Source: a virus. Taken from it: a stretch of DNA of 34,481 nucleotides. Location: positions 1 through 34,481 of IMG/VR virus record IMGVR_UViG_3300012270_000010; one strand, given 5' to 3'. Shown in pieces: positions 2,255-31,483 of the stretch (its first letter is position 1; each line of letters opens with the position of its first letter). A program made the position numbers and the translations under genes. The notes beneath the pieces were generated by a model, which worked only from the letters and a program-made list of their open reading frames with translations, did no database searches and was not told the DNA's origin.

Positions 2255-2662
2255 ATGGATATATCAACATTACCAGGGTGGGTGGGAGAAGTCGGAGGAT
2301 GGTTCGTAGGAGCTATCGCCGTCGGTTTTGCCGTGATCCAAGCATACTCATCAAAGTTTTCAGCGACTGAAAAAATAAAAGACCAAGCCTCAAAAGACTT
2401 GGTAAAAATTCTTCAAGTGACTGTTGACACTTTGAGAACTGAAATGAAAGAGCTTCAGTTACACCATCTTCAAAATGTTGAAGCTATTGCAAACCTTAAA
2501 GGGGAAAATGCTACTCTGGCAAAAATTCTTCAAGGTCGAGATGAAACTTATTTGAAGTTCCAGCAAGATGGTTTCGTGGCCTTTAGAAAAATTGAAGAAA
2601 ATAACAACGGTATTAAGGAGCTGGTCCAGCTGTTAGACAAACACTTAACAAAGCGTAATTAA
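2255..2662 (+). CDS. small membrane-anchored coiled-coil protein
   Basis: This 135-residue protein has one hydrophobic segment at about residues 12-31 (WFVGAIAVGFAVIQAY), followed by a long charged helix with heptad-like spacing from about residue 35 to the end. The layout, membrane anchor plus coiled coil, is seen in phage accessory lysis or tail proteins, but I recognise no family. It lies between the glycosyltransferase and a structural protein with short gaps, so it is probably translated from the same mRNA. Real gene likely; function unknown. Confidence 0.7.
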   Translation: MDISTLPGWVGEVGGWFVGAIAVGFAVIQAYSSKFSATEKIKDQASKDLVKILQVTVDTLRTEMKELQLHHLQNVEAIANLKGENATLAKILQGRDETYLKFQQDGFVAFRKIEENNNGIKELVQLLDKHLTKRN

Positions 2663-2668
2663 AAATTT

Positions 2669-4117
2669 ATGAGTAACTATTCACTTCCAAATTTTAGAGT
2701 CGACAAAAAGGATTGGCTCGGAGGAAACAACTCTTATGACCACTTCCCGGAAGGAGGTGCTTTAGCTGCGACTGTTGGTATTAATTCATTTTCAAAACCA
2801 GGACTTCTTTCTCAAGCACCAGCACTCGGAGCTGCTGTAACAGGGAGCCTTCCTACTACCGGAATTATCTCCTGGGGAATCGGTTCCGGGGCATCTGATC
2901 CAGCCGTCATCAGTGTCTTTGGAAACGCTAGTAACGATGCTTCGTTCTACAGCGTCAACGAAGCAACCGGAGGGATGACAAAAGTGGGCGCTAATGATGC
3001 CGCTCGAAATTATTCACTCGGGGTAACAGATACAGTCTGGTATGACGGAAGTTTTTATACAACTTCAGATAGCGATATTTGTAAAAACTCAGCTGACCTA
3101 GCTACTCGAGATACAACTTTCTGGACCGGGACTAAGAGCCAGTCGGCTCTGACTGTCGGTATCCCCCACCCACTTTTGGTGTACGAATCAATCATGTATA
3201 TCGCTGATGGCCGGTATCTGCATAAGCTAGATGGTACGACCGTATCAACTCAGGTATGGGATGCTCCACCGGATCATATCATTACTGCTATGGCTGAATA
3301 CAATGGCCTGATGTACATCGTGGCTGAACCATACAAAAACCTTGCCGGCTCAGTTCATGGACTATCACAAATGTTCTCATGGGATGGGCTTCTCGAATCT
3401 TGGTACGAACAGTACTTCTTGGATTACCGAGTCAACTCGATGTATGTGTATCGAAATGCCTTGTACCTCTGGACCAATGACTATGTTGGCCTTTGGACCG
3501 GTACTCAAGCTGAGCCGGTGTACCCGGTTTCGAACCAGGTATTCAAATGTCATATCACGGCAACCTCTGACTCAATGTTCTTTGTCGATGGAGGAACCTT
3601 GGTTCGATACGGAAAACCATTCATCCCCTCTCTCTCTCGAAAGTTCTACAACTACATGAGCTCAGCCGCCCTACCGTTTGCTGGAATCCTTTCTGCCTCC
3701 GGGGACAGTTTGATTCTCACTGAGACTCACGCTTCAGCTGCACCAAACTATTTCATCTCAAACATCAATGCCCCAGCCACAACAGGATCACGAACACTCA
3801 CTTTCAACAGTCGGTACTTCTTCCGGCCAGTCCGGGCCAGGGGAGTGGTGATTAACTGTGAACCCCTTGATGCTGGTCAATCGATCAAGGTTGGATATGT
3901 TGACAGTAATGGGGATACAAAGTTTGCTGCTGCGGCCGCTTCCTTCGACGGAGATGTGGCAACTATGGTGGGTCGAACAACTCAGGGTTTTGATGTGCTA
4001 AGTACTCCACCAACAAGATCGATGGATCCGGTAATTATTATTGAAGGGAACCCTCACATTCGTAGCGTCGACTTCTTGTACGAAGGTTCCGAATCTAAGC
4101 CGGAAGGCAATAGTTAA
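2669..4117 (+). CDS. virion structural protein, probable beta-propeller
   Basis: The 482-residue protein is rich in Gly, Ser, Thr and aromatic residues, with repeated short strands of the type VWYDGSFYTT, IMYIADGRYLHKLDG, LMYIVAEPY and ALYLWTNDYVGLW. These recur at roughly 40-50 residues and look like propeller blades. Similar propeller proteins occur in the tails of podovirus-like and other phages. A compact beta domain may follow after residue about 380. It is directly followed by the tail fibre gene after 5 bases, supporting a tail role. No catalytic motif is visible. The fold is inferred from strand periodicity, not from a recognised family. Confidence 0.7.
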   Translation: MSNYSLPNFRVDKKDWLGGNNSYDHFPEGGALAATVGINSFSKPGLLSQAPALGAAVTGSLPTTGIISWGIGSGASDPAVISVFGNASNDASFYSVNEATGGMTKVGANDAARNYSLGVTDTVWYDGSFYTTSDSDICKNSADLATRDTTFWTGTKSQSALTVGIPHPLLVYESIMYIADGRYLHKLDGTTVSTQVWDAPPDHIITAMAEYNGLMYIVAEPYKNLAGSVHGLSQMFSWDGLLESWYEQYFLDYRVNSMYVYRNALYLWTNDYVGLWTGTQAEPVYPVSNQVFKCHITATSDSMFFVDGGTLVRYGKPFIPSLSRKFYNYMSSAALPFAGILSASGDSLILTETHASAAPNYFISNINAPATTGSRTLTFNSRYFFRPVRARGVVINCEPLDAGQSIKVGYVDSNGDTKFAAAAASFDGDVATMVGRTTQGFDVLSTPPTRSMDPVIIIEGNPHIRSVDFLYEGSESKPEGNS

Positions 4118-15054: not shown

Positions 15055-15531
15055 CTATTTGAGCTGATAAATATTAGCCCCTCGAGCATGTTCGACCTCA
15101 TGCTGGAATATCTGAGCCATGAAGCCGGACATCTCTTCTTCCTTGTGCTTCATTTTTTTACCGTCTTCGATTGGTACATCATACGAAACTTTGATCGTAT
15201 CGTACCTCACAACCTTCTGGCTGGGCCGGAACGGAAAACTCATACATGATTCCCGGACCATCTTTTTTGTTGAACGATCTTTTTCTAAGATTTTTGGATT
15301 CACCACAACAACGATTGAATTTGGGTCGAGCCCCATCACTGAAGGATTGACTACAAAAAAGTTGTAAGGGTCGTTGCTGAACTGAGAGTGGTGGATGGCG
15401 TAGTGATTCTCAGAACCTTTTCCTTTTGGATCTTTGTAGTCACGCAGCAATTTATTCATCAGCCGGGCATCACGCGCAATCGTTTCAAATTCCAGCACCT
15501 TCCGTGAGGCTTTTTTAGGTGTTTTTATCAT
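15055..15531 (-). CDS. def-like: peptide deformylase-like protein
   Basis: The 158-residue protein has the order and spacing of peptide deformylase motifs. Motif 2 is E94-S-C96-M-S (usual EGCLS), and motif 3 is H144-E-V-E-H148 in QHEVEHARG (usual HExDH). The third metal ligand set, C96, H144 and H148, is present, as is the catalytic E145. Motif 1 (normally GxGxAAxQ) is degenerate: HYAIHHSQ around residues 43-50. The enzyme removes the formyl group from new protein N-termini. It follows a 51-residue gene with a 17-base overlap. Confidence 0.82.
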   Translation of the reverse strand: MIKTPKKASRKVLEFETIARDARLMNKLLRDYKDPKGKGSENHYAIHHSQFSNDPYNFFVVNPSVMGLDPNSIVVVVNPKILEKDRSTKKMVRESCMSFPFRPSQKVVRYDTIKVSYDVPIEDGKKMKHKEEEMSGFMAQIFQHEVEHARGANIYQLK

Positions 15532-23030: not shown

Positions 23031-23428
23031 GGTCGTATGAATTTAATTTTTAAATGCTCTGGCTTAATCTGTACCTCATAATCGTCTCCTTCTAGCTGGA
23101 CCACCACTCCGTACTCGTTGTGCCGGGTAACTATTCCGGCCCTTGGTTTGATTGTAGTGTCTGGTCCCCAGTCATCAATATCATCCGGAGGTGGAGGAAT
23201 GTAAAACTCTACATGGTAGCCGACCTTGAAGAATTGAGGATCCATCCGGTTGAGCTCTTTTAGTGGATAGAATACAGCAGATCTCATTTCGGCCAATTCT
23301 TTCCTGATCCTGTTTAGCTTAGTTGGGAGTATCTCTTTTTTTGCCTCATGCTTTTGCAGCATCAACTCTGTGCGTTGAATAGCTTTTACCAAAGCATCCG
23401 TTGTTAATTGTCCGTAAGGGTTATACAT
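23027..23428 (-). CDS. hypothetical coiled-coil plus small beta-barrel protein
   Basis: Residues about 10-50 form a charged helix (KAIQRTELMLQKHEAKKE), and residues about 65-133 look like an SH3/KOW-type barrel (KVGYHVEFYI, AGIVTRHNEYGVVVQLEGDDYEVQI). The layout suits a nucleic-acid or protein adaptor. Overlaps its neighbours by 4 and 8 bases, so it is translated together with the primase-helicase. Confidence 0.65.
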   Translation of the reverse strand: MYNPYGQLTTDALVKAIQRTELMLQKHEAKKEILPTKLNRIRKELAEMRSAVFYPLKELNRMDPQFFKVGYHVEFYIPPPPDDIDDWGPDTTIKPRAGIVTRHNEYGVVVQLEGDDYEVQIKPEHLKIKFIRP

Positions 23429-25805
23429 ATTGATCTGGATAAATTACTTTAGCTCCCCCTAGTGCTGAAACTTTTCGAAGTCCAAAAATAGTTTTTTTGC
23501 CATCAACCGGTCGAATATTTAGATTAAAACCATCGACTCGGTTATGAACTATCTCCCGGCTGAAGTTTGCCATAGCTTTCGGCTTATAGCCATGGTCCAG
23601 GCAGTAGCCACGATACTGAGAATAGAGGTCACTCACGGTGAGACTATACTTACTCTCGTCACCAGCTGGGGGTGCTTGGTAGTAAGAATTGATAAACTCG
23701 ACCACTGGAGAGTTATCGCTCTTGAATGAGCGCATCACTTCAAAGTTTCGTTCCGTCTCGTTGAACCGACCATCGGCGCGCAACATCTTGAGTCCTTCGA
23801 CTGCCCAGTTAAGAATCCCCGGCAACTCATCTGTGAGCTTCTGCTCCAGCTGGAGGTCCGGCTTCGCTTCGAAGGACCGATCGAACGGTACAATTGTGAA
23901 CCGTCGATAGAGTCCTGGTGTTGTGTCATTAATTTTTGGTAGCTCGTTGACTGAGAAAATCAATTTCACTGTCGGGGTGAACTCTAGCGGCTCCGGCCGG
24001 TACTTCACTTCAGCTGAGATTCTTTCACCGGAGATCAATCCCTTAATCACGTTCGACTCAAAATAATTCCCGGAGATCTCATCAATGAAGTTTACTTTTT
24101 TACCGATGAGCCCGGTCAGCCCGAACTGCCTGGTGATGGTTGAGAGGTTGAGTGTTGATACAGAATCTCGGCCAACAATTTTCCCGAGCATCCGAGTGAA
24201 CATAGATTTACCGTTAGCTCCCATTCCAAAGAAAATAAACGCCTTGGCAAAATTAGTATCAGTTGTCAGTGAGTAGCCGGCTATCTGCTGGAGCAATTTT
24301 GCTTGTTCAGGATCATCACTGGTGACTTCTTGGATAAATTGCAGCCAGCGTGGACACCTCGCCTCATGGTTAAACATCACAGGGATCTGCGAGGTTGAGA
24401 GATAATTTGGTGTATGAGCCGTCAGCTGGTATGTCGTGATATCGAGTAGCCCATTTTTAAAGTTGATGATGTTTGGGTTCGGGTTCTCATCCTCTTGCTT
24501 AAAGGTTCGGCCGTCGAGTGATTTGAAAGTAGCAATTTTATCGTTGGCTTTTGAGGTGGTTCGGTAGTTAGTGAGCCCATCCTTGAGCATCTCCCGAAAG
24601 AGCATCGATCGAACCTCTTCAGCCTGGAGTGATCGATACATCCCCTCTTGGTACTCATAAAAATCTCCCCGGTCCTTGTACTTGAGTGTCGGGTACCGGT
24701 CAGCAATCACGTACTCATACGTGGCATATTTTTCCTTCTGCTGGTTGTTGCTGCTGGCTCGCTCTTCTTTGGTCGACTTCGACAAAACTTTACTGGTGAC
24801 TTCAGAGAGTTTTACTCGCTCGTCTTGAGTCACTACGGCTTGCATCACTTCATTGTTGTATCCAAAATCATAGTTATGATCGAATGCACTACGAACCGTC
24901 TTCCGGACCTCCCGGAGAGAGAGTCCTTGATAGTCAGTGAAATGTGAGCATGTTTGCTCGAGTCCCCAGCCGGCTTCTTTTGCAGCGTGAGCCGCAACCA
25001 GTAGAGCTTTGTTTCTCATTCCTTCCGGGACCGGGGCATTATTAAAAAGAGCTTTGTAAGAATCGCGCTCTAATTTTGGGTACTCCTTTTCAATACCCTG
25101 CTTCACTTCATCATTAATTGCGTTCTCACTAGCGGCCAGTGCCCAGCCTTGAGCTGCTGGTTGTTTTAGAAAAGCCTCACGCACTTCTTCAAACGTGTAA
25201 ATACACTCATCTGGTGAGGCGTGAGTAATTTTTACTGTAAAAGGGTCAGCCGGGTCCTTCTGGTGAAGGCTTCCGGGGATACGCAATACTCGAGCCGCGT
25301 CTTTTGCTCCCGGGTCCCCATCGAACCGAGCCAAAATAGCTTCCTCAACTTGACGGTACTGTAGCTTCAATTCCTCGCGCTGGTTTTCATTAAGCTCATT
25401 GAGCATTACTGGTGCCTCGAGTATCCAGTACACGTGGAATCCATTTTTAGTTTCAATAACGTAGGTAGGAATCGGCAACTCATCTTCCATCATTTCCATT
25501 AAAAGCTCCTGCTTGTACTGCTTCACTGCTTCGGGAGTCCGGTTGATCTTGTCCGGGTAATCAATGTCAGCAAAAAAAGCATTGATGTTTGTCAGCGTGT
25601 CATTAGTTCGACGGCCTCCAGTGAAACCGTTGACTGTAAAAAAAATTCCGTATCCCTGCTGTTGGCGATCCAACTGGAGTACCTCACTATGAATAATTGG
25701 TGAAGCATCGTTTGAGTCGTGGATGTAGCAGTAAAGTGTATTCTTAAAAAACGATAGGAATTTATTTTGTTTTGAATCTAATTTTAATTTTATGGTGGCA
25801 AGCAT
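23421..25805 (-). CDS. AEP-type primase fused to superfamily III helicase (P4/D5-like)
   Basis: A 794-residue replication protein. The N-terminal part shows archaeo-eukaryotic primase signs: D80-I-D82 (FFADIDYP), H124 (NGFHVYW) and an acidic D164/D169 region (DGDPGAKDA). A middle D5_N-like region follows. The SF3 helicase has Walker A at GMGANGKS (527-534), followed by the usual downstream motifs. Such proteins prime and unwind DNA at the origin, as in P4-type phages and plasmids. It is the probable main replication enzyme here. Confidence 0.88.
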   Translation of the reverse strand: MLATIKLKLDSKQNKFLSFFKNTLYCYIHDSNDASPIIHSEVLQLDRQQQGYGIFFTVNGFTGGRRTNDTLTNINAFFADIDYPDKINRTPEAVKQYKQELLMEMMEDELPIPTYVIETKNGFHVYWILEAPVMLNELNENQREELKLQYRQVEEAILARFDGDPGAKDAARVLRIPGSLHQKDPADPFTVKITHASPDECIYTFEEVREAFLKQPAAQGWALAASENAINDEVKQGIEKEYPKLERDSYKALFNNAPVPEGMRNKALLVAAHAAKEAGWGLEQTCSHFTDYQGLSLREVRKTVRSAFDHNYDFGYNNEVMQAVVTQDERVKLSEVTSKVLSKSTKEERASSNNQQKEKYATYEYVIADRYPTLKYKDRGDFYEYQEGMYRSLQAEEVRSMLFREMLKDGLTNYRTTSKANDKIATFKSLDGRTFKQEDENPNPNIINFKNGLLDITTYQLTAHTPNYLSTSQIPVMFNHEARCPRWLQFIQEVTSDDPEQAKLLQQIAGYSLTTDTNFAKAFIFFGMGANGKSMFTRMLGKIVGRDSVSTLNLSTITRQFGLTGLIGKKVNFIDEISGNYFESNVIKGLISGERISAEVKYRPEPLEFTPTVKLIFSVNELPKINDTTPGLYRRFTIVPFDRSFEAKPDLQLEQKLTDELPGILNWAVEGLKMLRADGRFNETERNFEVMRSFKSDNSPVVEFINSYYQAPPAGDESKYSLTVSDLYSQYRGYCLDHGYKPKAMANFSREIVHNRVDGFNLNIRPVDGKKTIFGLRKVSALGGAKVIYPDQYV

Positions 25806-25830: not shown

Positions 25831-25980
25831 TTTATTGACGGGGAAGGCCCCTACCATCGGTGAAGAGGATTCGAACCTCATCCGACCCCTGGGAGCGCTC
25901 TACCAACTGAGCTACAGAATCCCGCTTAACGCAGCCACTGGTGGGACTCGAACCCACGCCATCTCTCCCCCGTCAATAAA
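25831..25980 (-). ncRNA. tRNA-arm cassette closed by a 13-bp inverted repeat
   Basis: On the - strand, TTTATTGACGGGG and CCCCGTCAATAAA close a 150-base segment. In order it contains a perfect T-arm (GTGGG-TTCGAGT-CCCAC), then a perfect D-arm preceded by TA and followed by G and CTCCC (GCTC-AGTTGGTA-GAGC), then a second T-arm-like hairpin (GAGG-TTCGAAT-CCTC). No intact acceptor stem or anticodon arm can be drawn in the normal order. CTCCC is complementary to GGGAG near the 5' end, which allows a circularly permuted reading. Confidence 0.5.
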
Positions 25981-26033
25981 CTATGATGAACTCATCTCAG
26001 CATTGTACACACGTGTCAGTCTTACGACAAATT

Positions 26034-26198
26034 TTATATGGTGGATAACTTTCCTACCCGGCTACGGACCCTGAAATACTTGTCGCTTTCAAGCTCTCCC
26101 TTTTTTAAAATTTCGTAGTGGACCTGGCAAACCATTACCCTGGCTCGGAGATCATTCTCTTCAATCGCTGGCTTTTGACACACCGTGCACTTTGACAT
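26034..26198 (-). CDS. small zinc-finger protein with leaderless start
   Basis: A 54-residue protein with C4-x2-C7 (KCTVC) and C24-x2-H27 (VCQVH), a zinc knuckle. The extended -10 box TGC-TAGAAT lies 6 bases before the ATG at 26198, so it is probably made from a leaderless mRNA. It lies between a terminator and the tRNA-arm cassette. Function unknown; a regulator role is possible. Confidence 0.65.
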   Translation of the reverse strand: MSKCTVCQKPAIEENDLRARVMVCQVHYEILKKGELESDKYFRVRSRVGKLSTI

Positions 26199-26204
26199 TG
26201 CAAT

Positions 26205-26210: not shown

Positions 26211-26216
26211 GCACAT

Positions 26217-26253
26217 AAAAAAAAGACGCAACCAGAGCTGGGGTAGTTGCGTC
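26217..26253 (-). terminator. intrinsic terminator of the accessory operon
   Basis: On the - strand a perfect 8-bp stem (GACGCAAC / GTTGCGTC) is followed by eight T. It ends transcription of the genes from 30398 to 26277. Confidence 0.88.
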
Positions 26254-26264
26254 AGTTAGATATA

Positions 26265-26277
26265 GATCACCTCCTTT
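26265..26277 (-). promoter_or_regulatory. orphan perfect Shine-Dalgarno sequence
   Basis: AAAGGAGGTGATC on the - strand is complementary to the 3' tail of bacterial 16S rRNA; the + strand reads the rRNA tail itself. It begins in the stop codon of the gene upstream and has no ATG, GTG or TTG at usable distance before the terminator. Confidence 0.7.
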
Positions 26278-26456
26278 CAGCGTGGGTCACAATAAGGGCA
26301 ACCCGAAACGAAGATCCTGTGGTGTGGACATCCGCCATCGATCATGTAATCCGGCGAGCCCGGTTGTGGTTTCGGTACCGGCGTAAAATCGAACGCATAT
26401 TGCTCGGCCTGGCGAAACCTTTCATCGAGTGGCAGATTCGGTTGGTCATGGTCCAT
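26277..26456 (-). CDS. small zinc-binding protein with a true Shine-Dalgarno site
   Basis: A 59-residue protein with GGCPHHRIFVSGCPYC at its C-terminus, a likely zinc knuckle, after a Pro/Gln-rich middle. AGGAGG (26462-26467) lies 5 bases before the ATG at 26456; the ATG at 26459 is too close to it. This is the only clear Shine-Dalgarno start in the window. Last gene before the terminator. Confidence 0.65.
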   Translation of the reverse strand: MDHDQPNLPLDERFRQAEQYAFDFTPVPKPQPGSPDYMIDGGCPHHRIFVSGCPYCDPR

Positions 26457-26481
26457 CATCTCCTCCTGTGCTGGTCTACAT

Positions 26482-30581: not shown

Positions 30582-30732
30582 TGTATATAGCATCTGGACC
30601 GGGATTAATACGCGCATATATATTGAGGTCCAGGAATGGCCGCGGGCCGTCGATCCTGGCGGCGTGGTGGTGTTGATCCTGTTGTTACTGTGGGCCGGTA
30701 GGCTGTTGGCTTGTGGCCTTGGTGGCTTGTAA
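30541..30732 (+). CDS. doubtful small membrane protein
   Basis: A 63-residue frame whose second half (EVQEWPRAVDPGG then VVVLILLLLWAGRLLACGLGGL) is GC-rich and looks like a short membrane helix, unlike the AT-rich surroundings. The first half overlaps the TTAAATGTCA boxes and has no ribosome-binding sign. It may be a real short gene, or a relic. Confidence 0.3.
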   Translation: MSLYRVGITFIKCHVYSIWTGINTRIYIEVQEWPRAVDPGGVVVLILLLLWAGRLLACGLGGL

Positions 30733-30860
30733 TAGATTGCTTGAGACGTGCAAAGGAATAAGAGACAAGTATTTATATAGGTATTATGCTGTTTTGTAAT
30801 AGATTGCTTGAGAGACAAAAAAGAATAAGAGACAAGTATTTATATAGGTTTTTTAGTGTT
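30727..30860. repeat. two tandem 67-bp iteron-like repeats
   Basis: Both units begin TTGTAATAGATTGCTTGAGA and share a 26-base block starting GAATAAGAGACAAG; they differ mainly in a 9-base middle part and the last 12 bases. A partial third unit begins at 30861. Confidence 0.9.
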
Positions 30861-31134
30861 TTGTATTAATTAAAGTATATATTTTCTATATAAAGTGGTC
30901 TATATAAAAAAGAGTACAAAAAGGTATATATTATACAATTATTTATATATACGTCAATAGGTTATATTTAGAGCCGTTTTTGTATGTTTATTATAAGAAA
31001 AGTTTTTTATTTTTAAAATGTGCTTTTATTCTTACAAATTGAGTATATATAGTATATAAAGCCTTGTTTATTATTCTTTTTTGAGTAAAAAGGAATCTAT
31101 TACAAAACAGCATAATAACTATATAAACACTTGT
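30765..31134. repeat. 45-bp inverted repeat spanning the AT-rich tract
   Basis: Positions 30765-30809 and 31090-31134 are reverse complements at 42 of 45 positions. They could form a large hairpin or bind an initiator in opposite directions. Confidence 0.88.
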
Positions 31135-31483
31135 TTGCTATTGATTGTTTAAAAACTTGTATTTTATTGATTAAATAGGAATCTTTTACAAGTTGCACGC
31201 AAGCGCGATAAAGGGCTGGAGTTGTCAAGGCCCCAGGAAACACTAAAAAAGCGCCTTGCTTACCTTTTCAACGCTTTGAACAGTTCCGAATGTATTACAA
31301 GGTGGCACTCTAGTACCTTTTAACTATTACAAGGTGCTTAGAATCGATTGTGTGGCCTCGATATCGAGGGCAATGGCTCATATTGTGCCGATTGTGAGCC
31401 AATAGAATGGGGACCGGCTCAGCTGGTCCAGGTGGTGCGCGTGTATTGTGGCCATGTCAAAAGGAATCACGCGCGTGAGTGTG

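What the first reader, a model, noticed from the sequence alone, without database searches (positions are those of the whole stretch)
25831..25980. 150-base cassette of tRNA arms, possibly permuted, inside a 13-bp inverted repeat
Two T-arm motifs flank a perfect D-arm, yet no normal cloverleaf can be drawn. Reading the 3' half first gives a near-complete permuted tRNA: GGGAG pairs fully with CTCCC, T-arm and D-arm are perfect, and the acceptor pairs at 4 of 7 positions plus one wobble. The closing 13-bp repeat could bring the ends together. Alternatives are a decayed tandem duplication or a novel RNA built from tRNA arms.
Basis: partly seen in the sequence, partly recalled or inferred. Interest (0 to 1): 0.78.

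Follow-up and report, generated by a model that had tools for sequence, protein, structure and literature searches.

The report
Phage Y RNA mimicking permuted tRNA
This stretch of a bacterial virus most likely encodes a small RNA of the known 'bacterial Y RNA' (YrlA) type, which imitates the body of a transfer RNA with its ends opened at the anticodon; it carries an extra tRNA arm and no partner-protein gene was found beside it, which makes it an unusual variant rather than a new kind of tRNA gene.

Summary
On the minus strand, 25831-25980 holds a 13-bp perfect inverted repeat enclosing T-arm, acceptor-like hairpin, D-arm and a second T-arm, 25 nt upstream of a D5-type primase gene in an IMG/VR phage record. 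It is not a tRNA gene. The order T-arm / closed acceptor / D-arm, opened at the anticodon stem, is that of the tRNA-mimic module of bacterial Y RNAs. Rfam's best match is YrlA (RF02553, E=4.6e-5, 30.7 bits; gathering score 69). Phage Y RNAs beside annotated Ro60/TROVE genes score 30-31 bits themselves. The permuted helices covary strongly over 14 independent loci. A model built without the window finds it at E=1.8e-18, although true tRNA arrays also reach 56 bits against its 59. A relative phage keeps the element at 98% identity while primase third codon positions are at 83% and upstream spacer below 55%. Unusual: a second T-arm, and no Ro60 gene in the record. A distant phage (L004) has two complete modules inside one long closing stem. 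Verdict: new variant of a known kind; tethering or decoy function is inferred.

The parts
25831..25980 (-). whole YrlA-like RNA element
   Evidence: IR, fold z=-3.3, 98% conserved in L002/G002
25968..25980 (-). 5' half of basal (closing) stem, TTTATTGACGGGG
   Evidence: perfect 13-bp pairing with 25831-25843
25831..25843 (-). 3' half of basal stem, CCCCGTCAATAAA
   Evidence: as above; the change at 25840 in L002 keeps pairing as G-U
25965..25969 (-). GGGAG, 3' half of the module-closing ('anticodon') helix; can alternatively extend the basal stem
   Evidence: 5/5 pairing with CTCCC; equivalent helix covaries in relatives
25941..25957 (-). T-arm 1, GTGGGTTCGAGTCCCAC
   Evidence: RF02553 alignment
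25915..25940 (-). acceptor-like hairpin (closed acceptor stem), CAG...CTG with inner CTGC/GCGG
   Evidence: equivalent helix has double changes at all 7 pairs in relatives
25897..25914 (-). D-arm with positions 8-9, TAGCTCAGTTGGTAGAGC
   Evidence: RF02553 alignment
25891..25895 (-). CTCCC, 5' half of the module-closing helix
25856..25886 (-). second T-arm (25865-25879, GAGGTTCGAATCCTC) on a GTCGG/CCGAT stem; probable truncated second module
   Evidence: fold; two full modules in L004
26002..26030 (-). promoter-like TTGTCG-17-TACAAT just upstream of the element
   Evidence: 9 of 12; 1.2 expected by chance in the region; 58/60 conserved across 25981-26040
23421..25805 (-). D5-like primase/helicase gene 25 nt downstream
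   Evidence: PHROG 864 E=8.7e-92; Pfam D5_N, DUF5906

Best explanation
The element is a phage-encoded small RNA of the bacterial Y RNA (YrlA) type. SHOWN by sequence: a long basal stem formed by its ends, carrying a permuted cloverleaf in which the acceptor stem is closed by a loop, the anticodon stem is opened and joined to the basal stem, and T- and D-arms are kept so that a tRNA elbow can form; a second T-arm hairpin in the same RNA, read as a truncated second module; conservation by selection. INFERRED: the RNA is made from its own promoter or cut from the primase transcript and works as an RNP scaffold, the elbow mimic holding a tRNA- or structured-RNA-binding enzyme (PNPase in known Y RNAs) and the basal stem holding a Ro60-type ring supplied by the host or an unseen phage gene, thereby redirecting RNA turnover in infection. 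Identity is much surer (about 0.88) than this tethering function (about 0.5).
For: Rfam RF02553 YrlA is the best family, E=4.6e-5, 30.7 bits, aligned over T-arm, acceptor hairpin, D-arm and closing helix. Phage Y RNAs next to annotated Ro60/TROVE genes score the same with that model: Tonenili 31.4, CcrColossus 30.5 and 29.9 bits, and they were reached by plain blastn with the window's element. Permuted, not normal, acceptor pairing: 5/7 against 1/7. The permuted helices covary in 14 other loci; a model built without the window finds it at E=1.8e-18. Tandem modules lie in the same 8 kb as TROVE genes in L024 and L028. L004, found without using the repeat, has the same closing-stem architecture. 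The element is 98% identical to G002 against 83% at primase third codon positions. Published description of YrlA (90-150 nt, large stem from paired ends, D/T/acceptor-like domain; PMC8394870).
Against: RF02553 score is below the gathering score of 69. No TROVE gene in the window, G002 or the contigs continuing past the window, whereas classical Y RNAs lie beside Ro60. The acceptor hairpin is imperfect. The folding optimum extends the basal stem rather than closing the module, by 10 kcal/mol. A Ro60-binding motif was not demonstrated in the basal stem. No transcript data.
Confidence: 0.8

Rival explanations
1. Same Y RNA-like RNA, but a Ro60-independent decoy: the phage uses an anticodon-less tRNA elbow with an extra T-arm to occupy host tRNA-binding enzymes (tRNA-targeting defence nucleases, RNase P, T-/D-loop modifying enzymes).
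For: No Ro60 gene found in this or several other phage records with such modules; anticodon arm missing so it cannot be cut there; YrlA is a known substrate of TruB and DusA (PMC8394870) and has been proposed as a competitive inhibitor of an anticodon nuclease (PMC7790460).
Against: Host Ro60 or an unseen part of the phage genome could supply the ring; no defence target known here.
Confidence: 0.2
2. Cis-acting 5' leader of the primase mRNA: the tRNA-like fold regulates primase expression (for instance by binding a tRNA-processing enzyme), rather than acting as a free RNA.
For: It ends 25 nt before the primase start codon with no terminator found between; 25 of 25 leader bases are conserved.
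Against: Relative G029 has the primase without the element; L004's copy follows a 218-aa gene near its contig end, so the gene context differs.
Confidence: 0.12
3. Decayed tandem tRNA array: remains of the 3' half of one tRNA followed by a tRNA that lost its anticodon arm.
For: T- and D-arms are canonical; blastn also aligns the element to tRNA-Pro/tRNA-Ser junctions in cyanophages; the held-out model also scores true tRNA arrays up to 56 bits.
Against: Acceptor halves pair in permuted and not in normal order (5/7 against 1/7); perfect closing repeat; no tRNA in the window; 98% conservation, above neighbouring silent sites; the same architecture in L004.
Confidence: 0.05
4. A true circularly permuted tRNA gene whose transcript is circularised and processed to a functional tRNA.
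For: Permuted order; GGGAG/CTCCC pairs 5/5; closing repeat brings the ends together.
Against: Acceptor pairs only 5/7; no identifiable anticodon loop at the junction; no RNA ligase or splicing endonuclease found among the window's proteins; YrlA explains the same features without splicing.
Confidence: 0.02

Closest known systems
Bacterial Y RNA YrlA (Rfam RF02553), partner of Ro60/Rsr and PNPase
   Same: Basal stem from paired ends; permuted tRNA mimic with T-arm, closed acceptor hairpin and D-arm; size within 90-150 nt; score equal to phage Y RNAs next to Ro60 genes
   Different: Extra second T-arm; no Ro60 gene found nearby; below the Rfam gathering score; no Ro60-binding motif shown in the stem
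Tandem two-module Yrl RNAs in phage L004 and Bacteroidota L024, L027-L032
   Same: T-acceptor hairpin-D unit followed closely by another T-arm; in L004 the whole is inside a long closing stem
   Different: They have a second acceptor hairpin and D-arm; the window has room only for the T-arm
Circularly permuted tRNA genes of red algae and archaea
   Same: 3' half encoded before 5' half
   Different: Those need splicing or ligation and give tRNAs; here the acceptor is a closed hairpin with imperfect pairing and no usable anticodon is seen
tmRNA (RF00023)
   Same: T-arm and tRNA mimicry
   Different: Only an 18-nt T-arm match; canonical D-arm present and no tag reading frame

Membership tests
YrlA / bacterial Y RNA | tRNA-like module: T-arm, closed acceptor, D-arm in permuted order | tested here: met
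YrlA / bacterial Y RNA | long stem formed by the 5' and 3' ends | tested here: met
   13-bp perfect, about 15 bp in the fold
YrlA / bacterial Y RNA | Rfam RF02553 gathering score (69 bits) | tested here: not met
   30.7 bits; but Ro60-adjacent phage Y RNAs also fail it at 30-31 bits, so the cut-off does not discriminate here
YrlA / bacterial Y RNA | encoded near a Ro60/TROVE gene | tested here: inconclusive
   none in the 34.5-kb record or relatives' contigs, but the genome is not closed and the host is unknown
YrlA / bacterial Y RNA | binds Ro60 through the basal stem | not testable with these tools
   needs a binding assay
YrlA / bacterial Y RNA | transcribed as a discrete RNA | not testable with these tools
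   no expression data; promoter-like site only
tRNA gene or array | acceptor halves pair in the normal order | tested here: not met
   1/7 normal against 5/7 permuted
tRNA gene or array | detected by ARAGORN or Rfam tRNA model | tested here: not met
   none by ARAGORN; Rfam tRNA 20.9 bits, below 29
circularly permuted tRNA gene | full 7-bp acceptor and an anticodon loop rebuilt across the junction | tested here: not met
   acceptor 5/7, no clear anticodon

The most novel reading that the evidence does not exclude
A class of 'orphan' phage Y RNAs, with one-and-a-half or two tRNA-mimic modules on one stem, works without Ro60 as a multivalent tRNA-elbow decoy against host tRNA-targeting enzymes.
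Probability: 0.17. Interest if true: 0.7.

Novelty: new variant of a known kind. Interest (0 to 1): 0.42.

Why it matters
It accounts for a striking sequence that standard annotation misses: neither ARAGORN nor Rfam's gathering threshold reports it, although its module is that of a Y RNA. It suggests that Y RNAs in phages are commoner than gathering-score scans show, can carry two tRNA mimics on one stem, and may travel without a Ro60 gene. That makes it testable whether the tRNA mimic has a job of its own during infection. If it proves an ordinary Ro60 tether using a host protein, it is one more Y RNA.

Tried and rejected
Permuted group I intron-exon arrangement: considered when 'T-acceptor-D' units appeared in Bacteroidota, dropped because gathering-threshold Rfam scans showed no intron there and TROVE genes lie in the same loci. 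True permuted tRNA and decayed array: tested by acceptor pairing and rejected. Finding relatives through the primase protein returned only the 98% relative; through the terminase 18 loci, but the fifteen searched with RF02553 gave no match. The held-out covariance model alone does not separate the window (59 bits) sharply from tRNA arrays (up to 56 bits), so it was not used as the deciding evidence. The original papers on bacterial Y RNAs (Chen 2014; Wang 2018; Sim and Wolin 2018; Burroughs and Aravind 2016) are not in the held library, so I could not check whether tandem modules in one Y RNA were already described. Literature searches for permuted tRNAs in bacteria or phages returned nothing matching.

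Full report
OBSERVATION. The cassette reads on the minus strand. From 25980 down to 25831 it has a 13-bp stem half, GGGAG, T-arm 1, an acceptor-like hairpin, a perfect D-arm, CTCCC, a second T-arm and the other stem half. It is the only 13-bp perfect inverted repeat of this spacing in the window, and three shuffled windows gave none. It folds at -64.8 kcal/mol, z=-3.3. ARAGORN finds no tRNA and no Rfam family reaches its gathering score.

SURROUNDINGS. The window is a 34,481-base IMG/VR phage record with amidase, RuvC-like resolvase, helicase, D5 primase and terminase genes. The element ends 25 nt before the start codon of the primase (23421-25805, minus). A promoter-like TTGTCG-17-TACAAT lies just upstream, though such sites are expected by chance at 1.2 per region of this size.

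CONSERVATION. One close relative is in IMG/VR (L002 = G002, primase 98% identical). Aligned with it, the element is 147/150 identical, the leader 25/25 and the promoter region 58/60. Primase third codon positions are 83% identical, and 26211-26481 only 39-54%. One of the three changes turns a G-C pair of the closing stem into G-U; the other two lie in the acceptor hairpin. The element is therefore probably kept by selection. A more distant relative (G029, primase 63%) has only about 115 nt between the same two neighbouring genes and no element.

WHAT IT IS. A search for T-arm / D-arm / T-arm with a short D-to-T gap split into two kinds, with a few loci in between. In true tRNA arrays the acceptor halves pair in normal order. 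In the others, including the window, the 3' acceptor half pairs with the next 5' half (5-7 of 7), and an 'anticodon' helix closes the unit (window GGGAG/CTCCC, 5 of 5). One of these, L004, found without using any inverted repeat, also has a long closing repeat around two complete units; its terminase is a distant relative (31%) of the window's. On 14 such units with the window and L002 left out, the permuted cloverleaf is paired in 93.5% of cells, with covariation score 0.774 against 0.193 for shuffles and at most 0.185 when slid. These loci were partly picked for pairing and the helix offset was chosen per locus, so the numbers are somewhat flattered; but every pair of the acceptor and closing helices has double changes.

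THE FAMILY. A low-threshold Rfam scan names it: YrlA, the bacterial Y RNA, E=4.6e-5, 30.7 bits, covering the module. The gathering score is 69, so a positive control was needed. Two of the best unannotated or hypothetical blastn matches in annotated phages turned out to lie directly upstream of 'Ro RNA binding protein' in Mycobacterium phage Tonenili and of 'putative TROVE-like domain protein' in Caulobacter phage CcrColossus. With RF02553 these score 31.4 and 30.5/29.9 bits, like the window. Bacteroidota loci L024 and L028 carry such units and a TROVE gene in the same 8 kb. A model built without the window finds it at 59.1 bits, E=1.8e-18; ordinary tRNA arrays reach 56 bits with that model, so it alone would not decide. 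Literature: YrlA RNAs are 90-150 nt, with a large stem from the paired ends and a domain resembling D, T and acceptor arms; the stem holds Rsr/Ro60, the domain PNPase (PMC8394870). Y RNAs have been identified bioinformatically in mycobacteriophages (PMC12282133).

WHAT IS UNUSUAL. (1) A second T-arm hairpin (25865-25879) lies inside the same closing stem. There is no room for a second acceptor hairpin and D-arm, so I read it as a truncated second module. (2) There is no TROVE gene in the window, in G002, in L004's record, or in the other phage records searched, except G006, where it lies about 12 kb away; contigs continuing past the window's right end add none. The genome is not closed, so this is not proof of absence. 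(3) GGGAG can pair with CTCCC (closing the module) or with the basal stem; folding prefers the latter by 10 kcal/mol, so the RNA may switch, or the elbow may sit on a five-way junction.

HOW IT LIKELY WORKS. Shown: the structure and its conservation. Inferred: a free RNA acting as a scaffold, with the tRNA-elbow mimic as handle for a structured-RNA enzyme and the basal stem as handle for a Ro60 ring; or, without Ro60, a decoy for tRNA-binding enzymes.

VERDICT. A YrlA-like phage Y RNA of a variant form; moderate interest. Whether tandem modules are already described could not be checked, because the primary papers are not held.

Noticed in passing
L016 (= G005, 164-kb phage contig) 1865-2394: A permuted tmRNA gene (RF04321, 82 bits) lies directly upstream of two tandem Yrl-like modules in one phage.
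   Followed up: no
L094 (CcrColossus) 2474-3085 and beyond: At least three YrlA-like matches, two of them unannotated, lie in a row before a TROVE gene; the first overlaps a region annotated near tRNA-Gln.
   Followed up: partly
L028 5440-6240 and L031 6960-7240: Bacteroidota tandem Yrl-like modules lie upstream of slipin-like genes (my reading of the protein), with a repeated 'TACTTCG' motif nearby in L028 that also occurs in CcrColossus; possibly part of the Ro60-binding stem. It is absent from the window's element.
   Followed up: no
window 30720-31142: AT-rich region between divergent gene sets with two 67-bp direct repeats and 90-nt inverted arms (83%); possible origin or divergent promoter region.
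   Followed up: no
window 26030-26200, minus strand: Small reading frame (MSKCTVCQKPAIEENDLRARVMVCQ...) with CxxC-type spacing between an intrinsic-terminator-like hairpin and the element; 87% conserved in G002.
   Followed up: no
window 15055-15531, minus strand: Phage-encoded peptide deformylase (PF01327, E=5.4e-16).
   Followed up: no
window, both ends: The record is not a closed genome: relatives L067 and L069 continue about 6 kb past its right end.
   Followed up: partly
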